Shown here: positions 1 through 45,420 of the stretch, one piece after another | Position numbering within the stretch: the first letter of the stretch is position 1 | How the letters are laid out: every line of letters starts with the position of its first letter | Assembly: GCA_903859215.1 (NCBI GenBank) | Contig: CAIOLW010000011.1 | Location: forward strand, 1 to 48,874 | From: an uncultured bacterium | GTDB lineage: Bacteria; Krumholzibacteriota; Krumholzibacteriia; LZORAL124-64-63 | Length of the DNA stretch: 48,874 bases | Direction of reading: 5' to 3' | Notes under the pieces: generated by a model | What the model was told of the DNA's origin: nothing | Seen by the model: only the letters and a program-made list of their open reading frames with translations | Databases searched by the model: none | Made by a program: the position numbers and the translations under genes

Positions 1-2763
1 CACGCGCGTCTCCTTCACCGCGTCGCAGACGTAGGCCATGCGCGCGAGCATGTCGTACAGCGCGCGCACCGCCTTCTGCTGCGCGGCGCGGGCCACCGGC
101 GGGTGCGGGTAGTCCGGGTCGTAGCCGACGTCGACGGTGCCTTCGTAGACTTCGTCGCCCTTGAGCAGGCGGTAGCGGTACGTGCCCTCGGGCGCGGCGG
201 GGCCGACGGCTGCGGCGAACGCGATCGACGGGTCCATCACCGGCGACGGCGCCACCTTCGGCGGTTTGAGCGTCGGCGACCACGTCACCATGTTCAGGCC
301 CTTGCGCGTGCCGCCGGGCAGCGTCTTGAGCACCGAGCCGTCGCGGTCGAGGATCTCGACCTTCATCTGCCCGACCATGTGCCGCTTCGCCAGGTAGTAG
401 ACGATGCGCGCGTCGGATTCGGGGTTGCCGGCCACGTAGTACGAGTCGCCGGGAAACTCCTGGTCGCCGCGCGGGATGCGCAGCACCGCGGGCCGCGAGG
501 GCAGCAGCGCCACCGGCGAGGCCAGCACGGCGGCCGTCAGGCTGCGCAGCGGGCCCAGGTCGTCGATCACCCAGACGCCGCGGCCGTGCGTGGCGATGAC
601 CAGCGAGCCGTCACGCGGGTGCACGACCAGGTCGTAGACCGGGACGGCCGGGAACTCCTCGGCGAAGCGCGCCCAGTGGCGGCCCCGGTCGAGCGTCATG
701 AACAGGCCGTTCTCGGTGCCCAGGTAGAGCAGGTCCGGGTTCACCGGGTCCTGCCGGATGACGTGGGCCTGGCCCGTCACGTCGGGCGTGACCAGCGGGC
801 GCCAGCTGGCGCCCAGGTCGTCGGTGGCGAAGACGTACGGCGCCATGTCGCCCGCCTGGTGGCCGTCGGCCGTGGCGAAGGCGGCGCGGCGATCGAACGC
901 CGACGCCTCGACGCAGCTGATCCAGGTGTCCCTGGGCACACCCGGCAGGTTCGCCGCCACGTTCGTCCAGCGCGCGCCCTCGTCGGCGGTCACCTGGAGG
1001 TTGCCGTCGTCGGTGCCGACCCAGATGACGCGGCGGTCGCGCGGCGACTCGCTGATCGTGAAGATCGTGCAGTGGTTCTCGGCCGTCGTGTTGTCGACGG
1101 TCAGCCCGCCCGACTGCTCCTGGCGCTGGCGCGCCGGGTCGTTCGTCGTCAGGTCGCCCGAAATGCGCCGCCAGGTGTCGCCGCGGTCGGTCGAACGGTG
1201 CAGGAACTGCGAGCCGATGTAGAGCCGCTTGCCGTCACCGGGGCTGGTGACGATGGGCGTGTTCCAGTTGAAGCGGAACTCGGGGTCGCCGGGGCCCGGC
1301 TGCGGCTTGACGTCCTTGCTGTCGCCGGTGCGGCGGTCCAGCCGCTGGATGTTGCCGCCCTGCCACTCCCAGTACACCAGCTGCGGGTCGGAGCGCTCGG
1401 GCGCCACCGAGAAGCCGTCGCCGCCGCCCAGGTTCGCCCAGTCGCTGTTGTCGATGCCGCCCGACGCGCGTGACGGGCCGGTCCACGAGCCGTTGTCCTG
1501 CAGGCCGCCGTAGACGTTGAACGGCCGCCGGTCGTCGACCGTCACGTGGTAGAACTGCGAGACCGGCAGGTTCGACACGTGCCGCCAGCCCGAGCCCTGG
1601 TTCGCCGAGATGTAGACGCCGCCGTCGGTGCCCACGATCATGAACTTCGGGTTCGCCGGCTGCACCCACAGCGCGTGGATGTCCGAGTGCACCCAGCCGC
1701 CCACGCCGTCGAAGGTGACGCCGGCATCGCGCGTGACCATCAGGTTGGTGCCGGCCTTGTAGACGCGCTTGGCGTCGGCCGGGTCGGGGATCAGCGACGC
1801 GAAGTAGAATGGCCGGCCGCCCACCGCGCGGGAATCGGTGGCCAGGCGCCACGTCTCGCCGCGGTCGTCCGACCGGTAGAAGCCCGAGCGCTCCGCCTCC
1901 ACCGCGGCGAACAGCGTGGCCGGCTGCGACGGCATCACGGCGATCGCGATGCGGCCGAGGTCGCCCTTCGGCAGGCCCTTGTCCAGCTTGCGCCAGGTGG
2001 CGCCGCCGTCGGTGCTCTTCCAGAGGCCGCTGCCCGGCCCGCCCGATGTGAAGAAGCACGGCGTGCGGCGGAACTGCCACATGGCCGCGTACATCACCAA
2101 GGGATCGGCGGGATCGAACGCGATGTCGACGCACCCGGTGGTGTCGTCCACGTAGAGCGTCTTCTCCCACGTGGCGCCGCCGTCGCGCGTGCGGAACACG
2201 CCGCGCTCACTGCCCGGCCCCCACAGCGGGCCCATCGCCGCCACGAACACGGTGGCGGGGTCGGCCGGGTGGATGAGGATCTCGGCGATGCGCTCGCTGC
2301 CCTTCAGCCCCAGGTTGACCCACTTGTCGCCGCCGTTGACGGTGCGGTAGACGCCGTCGCCCACGCCGACGCTGTTGCGCACCCACGACTCGCCCGTGCC
2401 CGCCCAGACCGTGTCGGGCCGGGCCTGGTCGATGGCCAGGGCGCCGATGGACTGCGTGTGCTCGTCGAAGACGGCCTCGAACGTGACGCCGCCGTCGCGG
2501 CTCTTCCAGATGCCGCCGCCGGCGCTGCCCACCCAGATGAACCGGGGATCGGACGCCACGGCATCGAGGCAGGTGATCCGGCCGCTCATCACGGCCGGGC
2601 CCAGGTTGCGCGCCCGCAGCGCGCCGAAGACGTGCGGGCCGATGGGGATGCCGTCCGCGGCCGGCGCCACCGCGGGCGCAGCCGCCTCTGCGGAGCGCCC
2701 CGCCGCCGGGAACAGGAAGGTGGTCGCCAGCATCAGCAGGCCGATGATGCGCAGTTTCTTCAC
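1..2763 (-). CDS. Exported BNR/sortilin-type beta-propeller protein (partial, C-terminus off left edge)
   Basis: The frame opens at a GTG (2763-2761) behind a strong AGGAGG and stays open to the left edge, giving about 921 residues without a stop. The start is KKLRIIGLLMLATTFLFP, a signal peptide, followed by a region reading NLGPAVMSGRI. At least ten Asp-box-like repeats (S/T-x-D-x-G-x-T-W) follow, for example SRDGGVTFE, TRDGGATWE, STDGGATWR, SDDRGETWR and STDRGDTWR. This pattern is typical of sialidase/VPS10 (sortilin)-like propellers of about 1000 residues. Such proteins are usually annotated glycosyl hydrolase, but no sialidase catalytic residues were identified, so a binding or surface role is equally likely. 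It lies 43 bp downstream of the exported protein at 2807-3565 and is probably co-transcribed with it. The C-terminal end, where a sorting domain might sit, is outside the window. Confidence 0.85.
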   Translation of the reverse strand, partial: MKKLRIIGLLMLATTFLFPAAGRSAEAAAPAVAPAADGIPIGPHVFGALRARNLGPAVMSGRITCLDAVASDPRFIWVGSAGGGIWKSRDGGVTFEAVFDEHTQSIGALAIDQARPDTVWAGTGESWVRNSVGVGDGVYRTVNGGDKWVNLGLKGSERIAEILIHPADPATVFVAAMGPLWGPGSERGVFRTRDGGATWEKTLYVDDTTGCVDIAFDPADPLVMYAAMWQFRRTPCFFTSGGPGSGLWKSTDGGATWRKLDKGLPKGDLGRIAIAVMPSQPATLFAAVEAERSGFYRSDDRGETWRLATDSRAVGGRPFYFASLIPDPADAKRVYKAGTNLMVTRDAGVTFDGVGGWVHSDIHALWVQPANPKFMIVGTDGGVYISANQGSGWRHVSNLPVSQFYHVTVDDRRPFNVYGGLQDNGSWTGPSRASGGIDNSDWANLGGGDGFSVAPERSDPQLVYWEWQGGNIQRLDRRTGDSKDVKPQPGPGDPEFRFNWNTPIVTSPGDGKRLYIGSQFLHRSTDRGDTWRRISGDLTTNDPARQRQEQSGGLTVDNTTAENHCTIFTISESPRDRRVIWVGTDDGNLQVTADEGARWTNVAANLPGVPRDTWISCVEASAFDRRAAFATADGHQAGDMAPYVFATDDLGASWRPLVTPDVTGQAHVIRQDPVNPDLLYLGTENGLFMTLDRGRHWARFAEEFPAVPVYDLVVHPRDGSLVIATHGRGVWVIDDLGPLRSLTAAVLASPVALLPSRPAVLRIPRGDQEFPGDSYYVAGNPESDARIVYYLAKRHMVGQMKVEILDRDGSVLKTLPGGTRKGLNMVTWSPTLKPPKVAPSPVMDPSIAFAAAVGPAAPEGTYRYRLLKGDEVYEGTVDVGYDPDYPHPPVARAAQQKAVRALYDMLARMAYVCDAVKETRV

Positions 2764-35990: not shown

Positions 35991-38123
35991 TCAGGTCTTC
36001 AGGCGGCTCTCGTCGAGCAGCCGGCACCCTTCCATCAGGACCGATTCGAGCGGCAGCCCGATGTTGGGCTCCGGGAAATCGGCGGTCGGCTCGACGGCGA
36101 AGCGGCCGTCGTCTTCCCATGCGATGATCCGGTAGACAGCCCATCCGCCCTGCAGGTCGCCGCACGCCGCATGCGTCAACTGGCCGCGATCGAGGTAGAC
36201 GACGGCGCTTTCGCCGTCGGGCCGCGCGAGGTCGATGCGCACCGACTTGAGGCTCTGGCTCAGCGTCTGCATCAGGTCCGTGAACGCGAAGGCGGTGAAC
36301 GTGGCCTGGAAGGCGCCGGGGCGGGCGGGCGCCGGCGCCGCTGCATCGCCGGCGGTCGCCGCGCGCAGCGCCTTGCGCAGCCGCGCCGCCGCCAGGTCGA
36401 TGTCGCGCGGCAGGGTGAAGACATCGTCGAAGCCCGCGTCGAACAGGGTGAGCATGCGCGCCGGGTCGCTGTGGCCCGACAGCGCGTAGACGCTCACGCG
36501 CGGGCCGGCGGCCAGCTGGTCTCGCGCCTGCAGGAGTTCGCGCGACACGCCGTCGTCCAGCACGAACACCGCCGCCGGCGCCTGCCGCGCGCAGAGCGCG
36601 GCGGCCTCGTCCAGCGCCGGCACGTTCACCACGCGGTATCCCAGGTGCGCCAGCCGCGCGGTGAACGGGCACAGCGCCCGCTCGTCGCCGCCGACGACCA
36701 GCAGTTGCTGGTGCGCCGTCGCCAGCAGTTCGCCCTCGCTGCGCTCGAGCAGCGTCAGGTAGCGCTCGACGATCTCGGCCCGCGCCAGGCGACCGGTGCG
36801 CGCGCGCAGGTCGGCGCGGGCCAGCAGCCCGCCCTGCTGGGCGTCCGCCGTCGTTTGCCCGCTGCGCTGGCGGTGATGCCACACCACCGCGAGCACCTCG
36901 GCGGCCAGCGCCAGGTGCGGGTCCTGCCGGCCGAACTCGTCCAGGTTCACGCGCTCGCCCAGCAGCTGGCGCAGCGCGGCCAGCGCGCCCTCGACGGGCC
37001 ACGGGAACCCGATCGCCGCCGCGTCGGCCAGCGTGCGCTTCCAGTCGACGCCGGTGCCGTCGTCGGCCAGCAGCGCGGCCACATCGGCGGCCGGCGGCGG
37101 CGCCGGGGCCAGCAGCAGCACCGCGGCCTCCAGCCCGTCGACGGCCAGGCGTTCAAGGCCGAGCGCCTCGCCCAGCGCGCGCGTGTCACGGCACATGAGG
37201 TCGGTCGCCGGCAGCGTCGACTGCGCGTACGGACCCGACGCGACCCGCAGGCGCAGCGCCCGCAGCAGGCTCCGGTACATCGCGGCGTACGGCGCCACGG
37301 CGCCCAGCAGCGTCGCGCTGACCGAGTCCAGGCGCGTCACCGGCGCGCGCAGGGCCGGCACATGGCCGTCCCGCACCCAGCCGCGCCACGCGTCGGCCAT
37401 GTCCGCCGCCACCAGCACGTGCCCGATGCCGCCGCGCCTGAGGCACGCCACCGCTTCCTCGGCATCGGCGGCGGGCGACAGCGGCCGTCCTTCGCGCTCG
37501 AACACCGGCGCCAGGAAGGACGGCAGGAATCCGCGCGCCGACACGAGCAGCACGCCGGGGCCCTCGGTCCCGGGCGCCGTTGCGTCGGACGCCGAAGCAG
37601 CCGTTTCCGGCGCGCCCTCGAACAGTTCCGGCAGCTCGATCAGCCGCAGCGGGCCTTGCAGCGCGTCGGTGGACGGCGCGATCGCGTCTAGCACGCGCAG
37701 GAAGGTCACTTCGGCGATCACGCATACGTCCAGCCGGCTGCAGGCCAGCCAGCGCCGCACTTCGGCCAGCGCCGTCGTGTCGCGCGGGTCGACCGCCGCC
37801 AGCGACAGCACGCCGCTGGACGCGTCGAACCCGAGCGGCAGCACCAGGTGCCGCCGCGCCAGGCCGGCGGGCATCCGCTCCAGCAGTTCACGCGAAGGCT
37901 GCTGGCGTTCGGGGTCGTACGCCCGCACGTCGAACTGCAGCGCCAGCGCCTGCCCCAGCTGCGCCTCGGTCAGGCATCCGTCGTAGACCAGGTGCGAGCC
38001 CAGCCGCCCGCCCAGCCCCTGCTGCTTGCGCAACGCCGCCGACACCTGCGCGGCCGTCACGAAGCCGAGGCGGATCAGGATCTGGTCGAGGCGTTCGGGG
38101 CGCGGCGTGTTCATGTCAGGCAT
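35991..38123 (-). CDS. MshEN / receiver-like / DUF4388 (PATAN) multidomain protein coupled to PilT
   Basis: A 710-residue cytosolic protein. Residues 1-140 form an MshEN (GspE N-terminal) domain (RLDQILIRLGFVTAAQVSAALRKQQG; GGRLGSHLVYDGCLTEAQLGQALALQF), a module that in MshE-type ATPases binds c-di-GMP. Two degenerate receiver-like segments follow (about 190-290: GVLLVSARGFLPSFL; about 490-610: LLVVGGDERALCPFTARLAHLGYRVV), flanking a helical region. The C-terminus (about 620-700: FQATFTAFAFTDLMQTLSQSLKSVRIDL, VVYLDRGQLTHAACGDLQG) is a DUF4388/PATAN domain. It lacks Walker motifs, so it is not itself a pilus ATPase. Its ATG lies inside the end of pilT (8-bp overlap); an alternative ATG at 38114 follows the pilT stop by one base. 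Confidence 0.85.
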   Translation of the reverse strand: MPDMNTPRPERLDQILIRLGFVTAAQVSAALRKQQGLGGRLGSHLVYDGCLTEAQLGQALALQFDVRAYDPERQQPSRELLERMPAGLARRHLVLPLGFDASSGVLSLAAVDPRDTTALAEVRRWLACSRLDVCVIAEVTFLRVLDAIAPSTDALQGPLRLIELPELFEGAPETAASASDATAPGTEGPGVLLVSARGFLPSFLAPVFEREGRPLSPAADAEEAVACLRRGGIGHVLVAADMADAWRGWVRDGHVPALRAPVTRLDSVSATLLGAVAPYAAMYRSLLRALRLRVASGPYAQSTLPATDLMCRDTRALGEALGLERLAVDGLEAAVLLLAPAPPPAADVAALLADDGTGVDWKRTLADAAAIGFPWPVEGALAALRQLLGERVNLDEFGRQDPHLALAAEVLAVVWHHRQRSGQTTADAQQGGLLARADLRARTGRLARAEIVERYLTLLERSEGELLATAHQQLLVVGGDERALCPFTARLAHLGYRVVNVPALDEAAALCARQAPAAVFVLDDGVSRELLQARDQLAAGPRVSVYALSGHSDPARMLTLFDAGFDDVFTLPRDIDLAAARLRKALRAATAGDAAAPAPARPGAFQATFTAFAFTDLMQTLSQSLKSVRIDLARPDGESAVVYLDRGQLTHAACGDLQGGWAVYRIIAWEDDGRFAVEPTADFPEPNIGLPLESVLMEGCRLLDESRLKT

Positions 38124-39201
38124 GCACCGGCGCGGGCCGCGTCTCGGCGCGCGTGCGCTGGGCCAGGGCGGCCGGTTCGGCGGCGAAGCGCATCGCCTCG
38201 TCGCTGGTGATGACGCCCTCGGCGATCAACTGGCCCAGGTGCTGGTCCAGCAGCTGCATGCCTTCCTTGCGGGCGGTGGTGATGACGTTGTTGATGAGAT
38301 GGCTCTTCTGCTCGCGGATCAGGTTGCGCACCGCCGGATTGCCCACCAGCACCTCGAGCGCCGCCACGCGGCCGCGCTTGTCCGCGCGCCGCACTAGCTG
38401 CTGCGAGCACACGCCCACCAGCACCTCCGAGAGCATGTGGCGGATCTGCGTCTGCTGGTTGCCCGGGAACGGGTCGACGATGCGGCTGATGGTCTGCGCC
38501 GCCGAGCGCGTGTGCAGCGTGCCCAGCACCAGCTGCCCCACCTCGCTGGCCGTCAGCGCCAGCGAGATCGTCTCAAGGTCGCGCATCTCGCCGACCAGGA
38601 TGACGTTCGGGTCCTCGCGCAGCGAGGCGCGCAGCGCCGTGGCGAAGCTCGCGCAGTGCTCGCCCACCTGCCGCTGGTTGATCAGGCAGTTCTTGTTCGG
38701 ATGGATGAACTCCAGCGGGTCCTCGAGCGTGATGATGTGCCCGTGCATCGTCTCGTTCAGGTGGTTGACCATCGCTGCCAGCGTGGTCGACTTGCCGGAA
38801 TTCGTGGGCCCGGTCACGAGGATGAGCCCCGATCGCGACGTCAGCATGTTCTTGAGCACCGGCGGCATGCCCAGCTGGTCGAGCGTCGGCACCTCGTTGG
38901 GGATGATGCGGAAGGCGGCCGCGAGCCCCGGGTACTTGCGGTAGATGTTGATGCGGAAGCGCGCGACGCCCGGCAGCGTGTAGGCCAGGTCGAGGTCGCC
39001 ATTTTGCTCGAGCACCTGGATCTGCGCGTCGGTCAGCAACTCGTAGATCGTGATGCGGAGCTCTTCCTCGGTCAGCGGACGGTGCTCACCGCGCTGCAGC
39101 ACACCGTTGATGCGCAGCATCGGCTCGCAGTTCGCGCTCAGGTGCAGGTCCGAGACGGAGTACTCCTGCATGATCTTCAAAAAGGCGTCGATACGGGGCA
39201 T
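38116..39201 (-). CDS. pilT: PilT/PilU-family twitching motility retraction ATPase
   Basis: A 361-residue AAA-type ATPase of the PilT family, which powers retraction of type IV pili. The N-terminal PAS-like part (YSVSDLHLSANCEPMLRINGVL) is followed by Walker A GPTNSGKSTT (131-140, with Asn where Gly is usual), the Asp-box stretch EDPLEFIHPNK, Walker B VILVGEMRDLETI and the His-box LGTLHTRSAAQTISRIVDPFP. The C-terminal AIRNLIRE-type motif is present as AVRNLIREQKSHLINNVI. The ATG at 39201-39199 has AGGGA upstream; the frame is open for another 29 codons but without conserved sequence. No pilus structural gene is in the window. It is translationally coupled to the MshEN/DUF4388 gene. Confidence 0.93.
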   Translation of the reverse strand: MPRIDAFLKIMQEYSVSDLHLSANCEPMLRINGVLQRGEHRPLTEEELRITIYELLTDAQIQVLEQNGDLDLAYTLPGVARFRINIYRKYPGLAAAFRIIPNEVPTLDQLGMPPVLKNMLTSRSGLILVTGPTNSGKSTTLAAMVNHLNETMHGHIITLEDPLEFIHPNKNCLINQRQVGEHCASFATALRASLREDPNVILVGEMRDLETISLALTASEVGQLVLGTLHTRSAAQTISRIVDPFPGNQQTQIRHMLSEVLVGVCSQQLVRRADKRGRVAALEVLVGNPAVRNLIREQKSHLINNVITTARKEGMQLLDQHLGQLIAEGVITSDEAMRFAAEPAALAQRTRAETRPAPVHA

Positions 39202-43918: not shown

Positions 43919-43940
43919 AATCGGACAAGAATGTCCGATT
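43919..43940. promoter_or_regulatory. 9-4-9 palindrome upstream of the chemoreceptor
   Basis: AATCGGACA-AGAA-TGTCCGATT is a perfect dyad 35 bp before the ATG. A second dyad, CTAAAG-N6-CTTTAG (43881-43898), overlaps the mscS stop. The first looks like an operator or a leader hairpin; no clear -35/-10 pair accompanies it. Confidence 0.5.
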
Positions 43941-43974
43941 GATCGCCCGGGTTGACCGTACCCTGGAGGCCACC

Positions 43975-45420
43975 ATGCCCCATCCTTCGCACGCCGGCGC
44001 TGCGCGAACGCAACTGCCATTGTCCCTTCGCCTTTCGCTGGCGCTGGGCTCCCTCTTCCTGCTGATGCTGGTGAGCATGGTGGCCACCCTGGTCACCGTC
44101 AGCGCCCAGAAGACCGATGGCCTGGTGATCAACCTGGCCGGCCGGCAGCGCATGCTCACCCAGAAGTACACGAAGGAAACCCTGCTGGCCGCCGCCGCTC
44201 CCGCCGGCGAGCTGCGCGACAAGGCGCACGCCGCCCAGGGCAAGACGGCCAAGCTGTACGAAGCCACCGCCTCGGCGCTGAAAGACGGCGGCAAGACCTG
44301 GCTGAACGCCGACCTGACCGGCGATGTGACGCTGCCGGCGACAAAGGCGCCGGGCATTGTCGCGCAACTGGACGCCGCCGCCGGGCAGTGGCAGGTGCTG
44401 GTCAAGGCCGCGGGCGCGCTCGAGGCGTCGGGGCCCGGCGACAAGGGCGCGCTGGGCGCGCTGCTGGGCGCCAGCGTCGACGTGCTCAAGACGCTGAACG
44501 CCTCGGTGGCGTCGTACCAGGCACGCACCGACGAGCGCGTGCACACGCTGATCTGGATCCAGTGCGGCTCGATGCTGCTGGCCCTGTTCTCGTTCGCCGC
44601 CGCCGTGCTGTACATCGTGCGTGGGGTGACCAAGCCGATCGAGATCGTCGTCAACGACATGAAGACCGGCTCGACCGAACTGGCGGGCGCCGCCGAGTCC
44701 GTGGCGCAGGCGAGCACCTCGCTGGCGGGCCAGTCGTCCGACCAGGCGGAACGGCTGCAGGAGACGTCCGCCTCGCTGACGGTCATGGCCTCGCTCGCGC
44801 GGGAGAACACGACCGCCAGCGGCGAGGTCGGCCGACTGACCGACCAGGTGCTGTCGGCGGCGCGCAACGGACGCGACTCGATGGCCTCGATGAAGGATGC
44901 GATGGTGCGCATCGACCAGTCGTCCAACGCGACGGCGGAGATCATCAAGTCGATCGACGGCATCGCCTTCCAGACCAACCTGCTGGCGCTGAACGCGGCG
45001 GTCGAGGCGGCGCGCGCCGGCGAGGCCGGCCGCGGCTTCGCCGTGGTGGCCGAGGAGGTCCGCAACCTGGCGCAGCGCAGCGCCGAGGCGGCGCGCCACA
45101 GCTCGGCGCTGCTGATCGAGTCGGGGCAGAACGTGGCGGCCGGCGTCCAGGCCGTGCAGTCGCTGGAGACCGTGTTCGACAACATCGCTGAAGGAGCAGC
45201 GGCTGTCAGCGGGCGCATGTCCGTGATCGCCGGCGCCATCTCCCGCCAGAACACCGAACTGGGCGGCCTGCACGATGCGATGGGCCATCTCGACGACCTG
45301 ACCCAGGGTGGCGCCGCAGCCGCCGAAGAATCAGCAGCGGCAGCCGAACAGCTGGCCGCGCAGGCCCAGCAGATCGACGCCGTGGCCCGGCAACTGGGCG
45401 CGGTGATCGGCTCCCGGTAG
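43975..45420 (+). CDS. Methyl-accepting chemotaxis protein with PilJ-type sensor domain
   Basis: A 481-residue transducer. The first transmembrane helix (about 20-44) leads into a periplasmic domain starting [22 protein letters not shown], the signature of the PilJ N-terminal (type IV pilus MCP) domain. A second membrane helix lies at about 190-220. The cytoplasmic signalling hairpin has the invariant tip [48 protein letters not shown]. No recognisable HAMP of normal length separates helix and hairpin, making it a short transducer. It would signal through a CheA/CheW system not in this window. GGAGG precedes the ATG. The PilJ domain links it in theme to pilT, about 5 kb away. Confidence 0.92.

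What the first reader, a model, noticed from the sequence alone, without database searches (positions are those of the whole stretch)
35991..39201. PilT translationally coupled to an MshEN/receiver-like/DUF4388 protein
The second gene overlaps pilT by 8 bp and joins a putative c-di-GMP-binding MshEN module, two degenerate receiver-like domains and a PATAN/DUF4388 module, without any ATPase motor. PATAN domains in cyanobacteria interact with PilB and PilT to control twitching. The pair may be a dedicated switch that sets pilus retraction according to c-di-GMP, not described in this form as far as I know.
Basis: partly seen in the sequence, partly recalled or inferred. Interest (0 to 1): 0.68.

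Follow-up and report, generated by a model that had tools for sequence, protein, structure and literature searches.

The report
Dedicated pilus-retraction motor with signalling partner
A pilus-retraction motor gene (pilT) in this uncultured bacterium is tightly joined to a gene for a multi-domain, apparently non-enzymatic signalling protein, and the two travel together across at least three bacterial phyla, which makes this an undescribed candidate control unit for pilus retraction.

Summary
pilT (38116-39201, -) is followed at once by a 707-710 aa protein (35991-38123, -) with MshEN (Pfam 2e-12) and DUF4388/PATAN (7e-14) and no motor domain. The 8-bp overlap depends on the start codon; the alternative start lies 1 base after the pilT stop.
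New here: (1) pilT lies directly upstream in 23 of 24 full-length homologues (Krumholzibacteriota-class, Desulfobacterota, Gemmatimonadota genomes); the exception keeps a pilT relic. In the window's phylum, PilTs at least 65% identical occur only in the 9 genomes that carry the full pair; flanking genes differ. (3) MshEN motif spacing and motif II are intact, but motif I has Asp where Gly contacts the base, in 21/23 members, while 12 paralogous MshEN domains keep Gly. Gly-to-Leu/Ile there abolishes c-di-GMP binding in MshE.
Best reading: a dedicated PilT with a cognate pseudo-signalling adaptor that gates retraction. A c-di-GMP input is plausible but unproven; a cGAMP-specificity idea was tested by co-occurrence and not supported. 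New variant of a known kind (regulators of type IV pilus ATPases).

The parts
38116..39201 (-). pilT: PilT/PilU-family retraction ATPase, 361 aa; Walker A GPTNSGKST, LEDPLEF, VGEMRD and GTLHT motifs intact
   Evidence: TIGR01420 455 bits; T2SSE 3e-45; motif alignment
35991..38123 (-). partner protein, 710 aa from the first ATG (707 aa from the ATG at 38114); MshEN / pseudoREC / pseudo-HD-GYP / pseudoREC / DUF4388, no motor domain
38116..38123 (-). 8-bp overlap with pilT if the first ATG is used; the second ATG (38114) lies 1 base beyond the pilT stop
37935..38093 (-). MshEN_N, two 24-residue motifs with 5-residue spacer (residues 8-60 of 707): RLDQILIRLGFVTAAQVSAALRKQ / QGLGG / RLGSHLVYDGCLTEAQLGQALALQ; motif I Gly replaced by Asp10
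   Evidence: NF053729 over cut-off; 5htl best Foldseek hit E 1.6e-7
37677..37931 (-). MshEN_C subdomain (residues 62-146), with Asp109 matching MshE Asp108
   Evidence: Pfam MshEN 2.3e-12
37329..37559 (-). degenerate receiver 1 (about residues 186-262): no acidic pair, no phosphoacceptor Asp
36720..37307 (-). degenerate HD-GYP-like helical domain (about residues 270-465): HD and HHE positions lost
   Evidence: Foldseek top five all HD-GYP, TM 0.52-0.58, prob 0.99-1.00, best E 0.045; hhalign E 2.3e-5 against controls of 0.025 or more
36351..36713 (-). degenerate receiver 2 (about residues 468-588): acidic pair and Lys lost, phosphoacceptor not conserved
36006..36302 (-). DUF4388/PATAN-type domain (residues 605-703)
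   Evidence: Pfam 7e-14; 23 of 23 members

Best explanation
This is a self-contained two-gene unit: a distinct PilT subfamily plus a cognate, probably non-enzymatic, signalling adaptor made together with it. The adaptor most likely docks on this PilT, or on the PilT/PilC platform, through its C-terminal DUF4388/PATAN domain; the degenerate HD-GYP and receiver domains form the rigid or dimerising body; and the N-terminal MshEN four-helix bundle is the input that changes affinity or conformation and so permits or blocks retraction by this motor without touching the cell's other two PilT-like ATPases. Shown: gene structure, domains, conserved adjacency, co-inheritance, loss of catalytic and phosphorylation residues. 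Inferred: PilT binding, gating of retraction, and the ligand. The likeliest ligand is c-di-GMP or a close relative bound with altered affinity, because most other binding positions are kept.
For: Adjacency in 23/24 full-length members in three phyla, with a pilT C-terminal relic in the 24th. PilT of at least 65% identity occurs in exactly the 9 of 78 phylum genomes with the full pair; other PilTs listed there are 52% or less. PilT and partner distances correlate, r=0.93, P=1e-4, 21 pairs. Flanking genes not conserved. MshEN_N (52%) and DUF4388 (49%) are the most conserved segments, against 25-37% elsewhere. PilT ATPase motifs intact. The own genome has two other PilT-like ATPases (41-44%), 5 GGDEF and 8 HD-GYP hits, so c-di-GMP signalling is probably present. 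Precedents: PATAN regulators bind PilB1/PilC (PMC12288463); c-di-GMP shifts extension and retraction through MshE (PMC7096442).
Against: No direct evidence of contact between the two proteins. Asp at the motif-I Gly site may abolish c-di-GMP binding. The distance correlation and co-inheritance also fit simple joint transfer of an operon. PATAN is documented to bind the extension side (PilB1, PilC), not PilT, in the papers read.
Confidence: 0.6

Rival explanations
1. The MshEN_N bundle no longer binds any nucleotide; it has become a protein-binding module, so the adaptor is a ligand-independent scaffold or localisation factor for this PilT.
For: Asp in the base-contact Gly position in 21/23; Gly11 to Leu/Ile abolishes binding in MshE; the receivers and HD-GYP-like domain have also lost their active residues; a PilB N-terminal MshEN-like domain is seen bound to the PilZ protein in solved structures (7lko, 7lkm).
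Against: The remaining ligand positions are nearly invariant over three phyla, and the change is a fixed Asp, not drift; MshEN_N is the best-conserved segment; NCBIfam's c-di-GMP motif model is passed.
Confidence: 0.35
2. The Asp changes base specificity: motif I reads adenine and motif II guanine, so the input is 3',3'-cGAMP rather than c-di-GMP.
For: In MshE the backbone amides of Gly11 and the next residue face guanine O6/N7 (PMC11731258), so a carboxylate there could favour an adenine amino group (inference). Hypr-like GGDEFs with Ser at the Asp/Ser position occur in G012, G013 and G002, which carry the pair.
Against: No such GGDEF among the GGDEF hits of the own genome, G044 or G082, which carry the same Asp.
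Confidence: 0.07
3. Ordinary operon of two pilus genes: the partner acts elsewhere (for example on PilB or exopolysaccharide) and adjacency only reflects co-transcription.
For: PATAN proteins documented in the papers read act on PilB1 and PilC. A short form in G077 without adjacent pilT shows that a relative can exist alone.
Against: Neighbouring genes of the unit are unrelated between loci, it has a private PilT subfamily, and the own genome's PilB gene is elsewhere, next to another PilT (contig C44).
Confidence: 0.2

Closest known systems
MshE / PilB / PilF-type extension ATPases with N-terminal MshEN (GSPII)
   Same: MshEN domain with 24-5-24 motif geometry; best structural hit is 5htl
   Different: No ATPase in the same chain; linked to PilT, not to extension; Asp instead of Gly in motif I
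PATAN-REC regulators of cyanobacteria (PixG, PixE, LsiR)
   Same: DUF4388/PATAN domain plus receiver fold, type IV pilus context
   Different: Receivers lack phosphorylation residues; MshEN and HD-GYP-like domains added; target probably PilT rather than PilB/PilC
MshEN proteins fused to REC or HD-GYP (listed in PMC5013675; MXAN_2807 in PMC8844925)
   Same: Non-motor MshEN proteins combined with REC or HD-GYP
   Different: HD-GYP degenerate here; DUF4388 added; coupled to pilT
FimX / PilZ control of PilB
   Same: c-di-GMP-linked, largely non-enzymatic adaptors on a pilus ATPase
   Different: Different domains; extension ATPase; not in an operon with pilT (general knowledge)

Membership tests
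PilT family retraction ATPase | TIGR01420 score above cut-off; Walker A/B, catalytic Glu, His box | tested here: met
   455 against 319 bits; motifs. Walker A carries Asn134 where the other PilTs compared have Gly, still a valid P-loop
PilT family retraction ATPase | drives pilus retraction | not testable with these tools
   needs experiment
MshEN c-di-GMP receptor | MshEN fold and two 24-residue motifs with 5-residue spacer | tested here: met
MshEN c-di-GMP receptor | Gly at position 3 of both motifs | tested here: not met
   motif II Gly invariant; motif I Asp in 21/23, Ser and Gly in one each; 12 paralogues keep Gly
MshEN c-di-GMP receptor | binds c-di-GMP | not testable with these tools
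   ITC or DSF needed
HD-GYP domain | fold | tested here: met
   Foldseek top five, TM 0.52-0.58, E 0.045 so moderate; hhalign E 2.3e-5 with controls
HD-GYP domain | catalytic HD, HHE and GYP residues | tested here: not met
   absent in the profile alignment
PATAN (DUF4388) response regulator | DUF4388 domain | tested here: met
   23/23 members
PATAN (DUF4388) response regulator | phosphorylatable receiver | tested here: not met
   acid pair, acceptor Asp and Lys not conserved in either receiver

The most novel reading that the evidence does not exclude
A pilus-retraction motor with its own nucleotide-gated brake: the variant MshEN site, with a fixed Asp, reads a cyclic dinucleotide with changed affinity or changed base preference and directly controls a private PilT subfamily, so that retraction itself, not extension, is set by the second messenger.
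Probability: 0.25. Interest if true: 0.78.

Novelty: new variant of a known kind. Interest (0 to 1): 0.6.

Why it matters
The c-di-GMP inputs to type IV pili found in the papers read act on extension ATPases (MshE, PilB with FimX/PilZ); whether c-di-GMP affects PilT-driven retraction independently is stated as open in PMC7096442. A conserved pilT-adaptor pair with a MshEN domain makes that question directly testable, and its fixed Asp marks a MshEN sub-type whose ligand can be assayed.

Tried and rejected
cGAMP-specificity idea: looked for Hypr-type GGDEFs (GHxxGS) in genomes with the pair; present in three, absent from the GGDEF hits of the own genome, G044 and G082; only six of the 44 GGDEFs of G080 were read. 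Sequence search of the middle domain against PDB gave nothing; its identity came from the fold and from profile comparison. Viral fold library: only generic receivers. Conserved third gene near the pair: none found. No paper in the library holds both 'MshEN domain' and 'DUF4388'; subscription papers such as Han 2022 on PATAN regulators could not be read.

Full report
Observation. On the minus strand, pilT runs 39201-38116 and the partner 38123-35991. PilT is a clear TIGR01420 member (455 bits) with intact P-loop, catalytic Glu, Walker B and His box. The partner has MshEN and DUF4388 above Pfam cut-offs and no ATPase. The 8-bp overlap requires the first of two ATGs; the second starts 1 base after the pilT stop, and its equivalent is the only one present in L006. 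Across homologues the genes lie about -19 to +29 bases apart. Tight spacing is conserved, the exact overlap is not.

Conservation. Homologues came from genome contigs, the window's phylum (11 of 80 genomes), the phylum of G080 (Desulfobacterota, judged by the record titles of L007 and L010; 8 of 395) and the phylum of G082 (Gemmatimonadota, judged by record title; 5 of 298). The window's class contains a genome titled Candidatus Krumholzibacteriota (G013/L009). Of 24 genomes with a full-length partner, 23 have pilT directly upstream on the same strand. In L025 (G012) pilT is cut by the contig end, and in G081 the partner is split over two contigs. The 24th (L027, G078) keeps only a C-terminal pilT remnant. 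A 335-aa MshEN-DUF4388 short form in G077 has no adjacent pilT.

Conversely, PilT proteins at least 65% identical to the window's occur in exactly the nine phylum genomes that have the full pair, and the other PilTs listed there reach 52% at most. PilT and partner distances correlate (Mantel r=0.93, P=1e-4, 21 pairs). Genes around the pair are unrelated between the loci examined. This is a jointly inherited or jointly transferred two-gene unit with a private PilT subfamily, marked by Asn134 in Walker A (Gly in both own-genome paralogues and in the two divergent pairs L045/L046).

Architecture. The AlphaFold model (pLDDT 77) and searches give: MshEN 1-146 (best PDB fold hit 5htl, MshE with c-di-GMP, E 1.6e-7); a degenerate receiver, about 186-262; a helical domain, about 270-465; a degenerate receiver 468-588 (KdpE/PleD-type profile hits); DUF4388 605-703. 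The helical domain, modelled alone (pLDDT 83, pTM 0.80), has five HD-GYP chains as its top Foldseek hits (TM 0.52-0.58, prob 0.99-1.00, best E 0.045). A profile alignment to 12 HD-GYP domains from related genomes gives E 2.3e-5 over 157 collinear columns, against 0.025 or worse for the reversed profile, 20 shuffled profiles and five unrelated profiles. The HD and HHE residues are gone. Receiver acid pairs, acceptor Asp and Lys are not conserved. The protein is therefore probably non-enzymatic.

The ligand site. The two motifs have exact 24-5-24 geometry. Arg1 and Leu2 of motif I, Gly10, Gln24, motif II Gly3 and the MshEN_C Asp are conserved or nearly so in 23 members, but motif I position 3 is Asp in 21 (Ser in L045, Gly in L046). 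Eleven paralogous MshEN domains from G080-G082 and one from the own genome keep Gly; the own PilB has a degenerate motif I. Gly at this position contacts the base through its amide (PMC11731258), and G11L/I destroys binding in MshE (PMC5013675); an Asp there is not mentioned in the passages read. MshEN_N is nonetheless the best-conserved segment (52% mean identity). A fixed substitution within an otherwise kept site suggests changed chemistry, or a protein interface, rather than decay; which of these cannot be decided here.

Mechanism. Most likely the partner is a cognate adaptor that gates this PilT: DUF4388 docks on the motor or platform (PATAN regulators bind PilB1 and PilC in Synechocystis, PMC12288463), and MshEN supplies the input. 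Binding, gating and ligand are inferred. The own genome has GGDEF and HD-GYP genes, so c-di-GMP is probably available. The cGAMP variant was tested by co-occurrence of Hypr-like GGDEFs and not supported.

Limits. Only three phyla were sampled, and the converse test (PilT subfamily without partner) was run only in the window's phylum. The equation of PATAN with DUF4388 rests on general knowledge of the families. The HD-GYP assignment rests on a moderate fold match plus a controlled profile match, not on a curated family hit.

Noticed in passing
L059, L060, L065 (G012, G013, G002): GAF-GGDEF proteins with Ser instead of Asp in GHxxGD, the position of Ser347 in the Geobacter Hypr enzyme GacA as I recall it (an S347D variant is listed in PMC6456294): candidate cGAMP synthases in the window's class.
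   Followed up: partly
L027 (G078), upstream of position 1498: Partner intact but pilT reduced to a C-terminal remnant just upstream: loss of the motor with retention of the adaptor.
   Followed up: partly
L030 (G077), 1093-1989, minus strand: MshEN-DUF4388 protein (open frame of 335 aa) with the same Asp in motif I but no receiver or HD-GYP-like domains and no pilT nearby.
   Followed up: partly
window 43939-45420: PilJ-type methyl-accepting chemotaxis protein (Pfam PilJ 7e-12, MCPsignal 1.5e-34) about 5 kb from the pilT pair: possibly another pilus-control gene.
   Followed up: no
window 38782-38817 (pilT Walker A): GPTNSGKST with Asn instead of Gly at residue 134, fixed in the core pair subfamily.
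   Followed up: partly
L045, L046 (G326, G258): Divergent pairs (PilT 54-56%) with shorter middle region and Ser or Gly at the motif-I site: likely outgroup to the Asp-bearing clade.
   Followed up: partly
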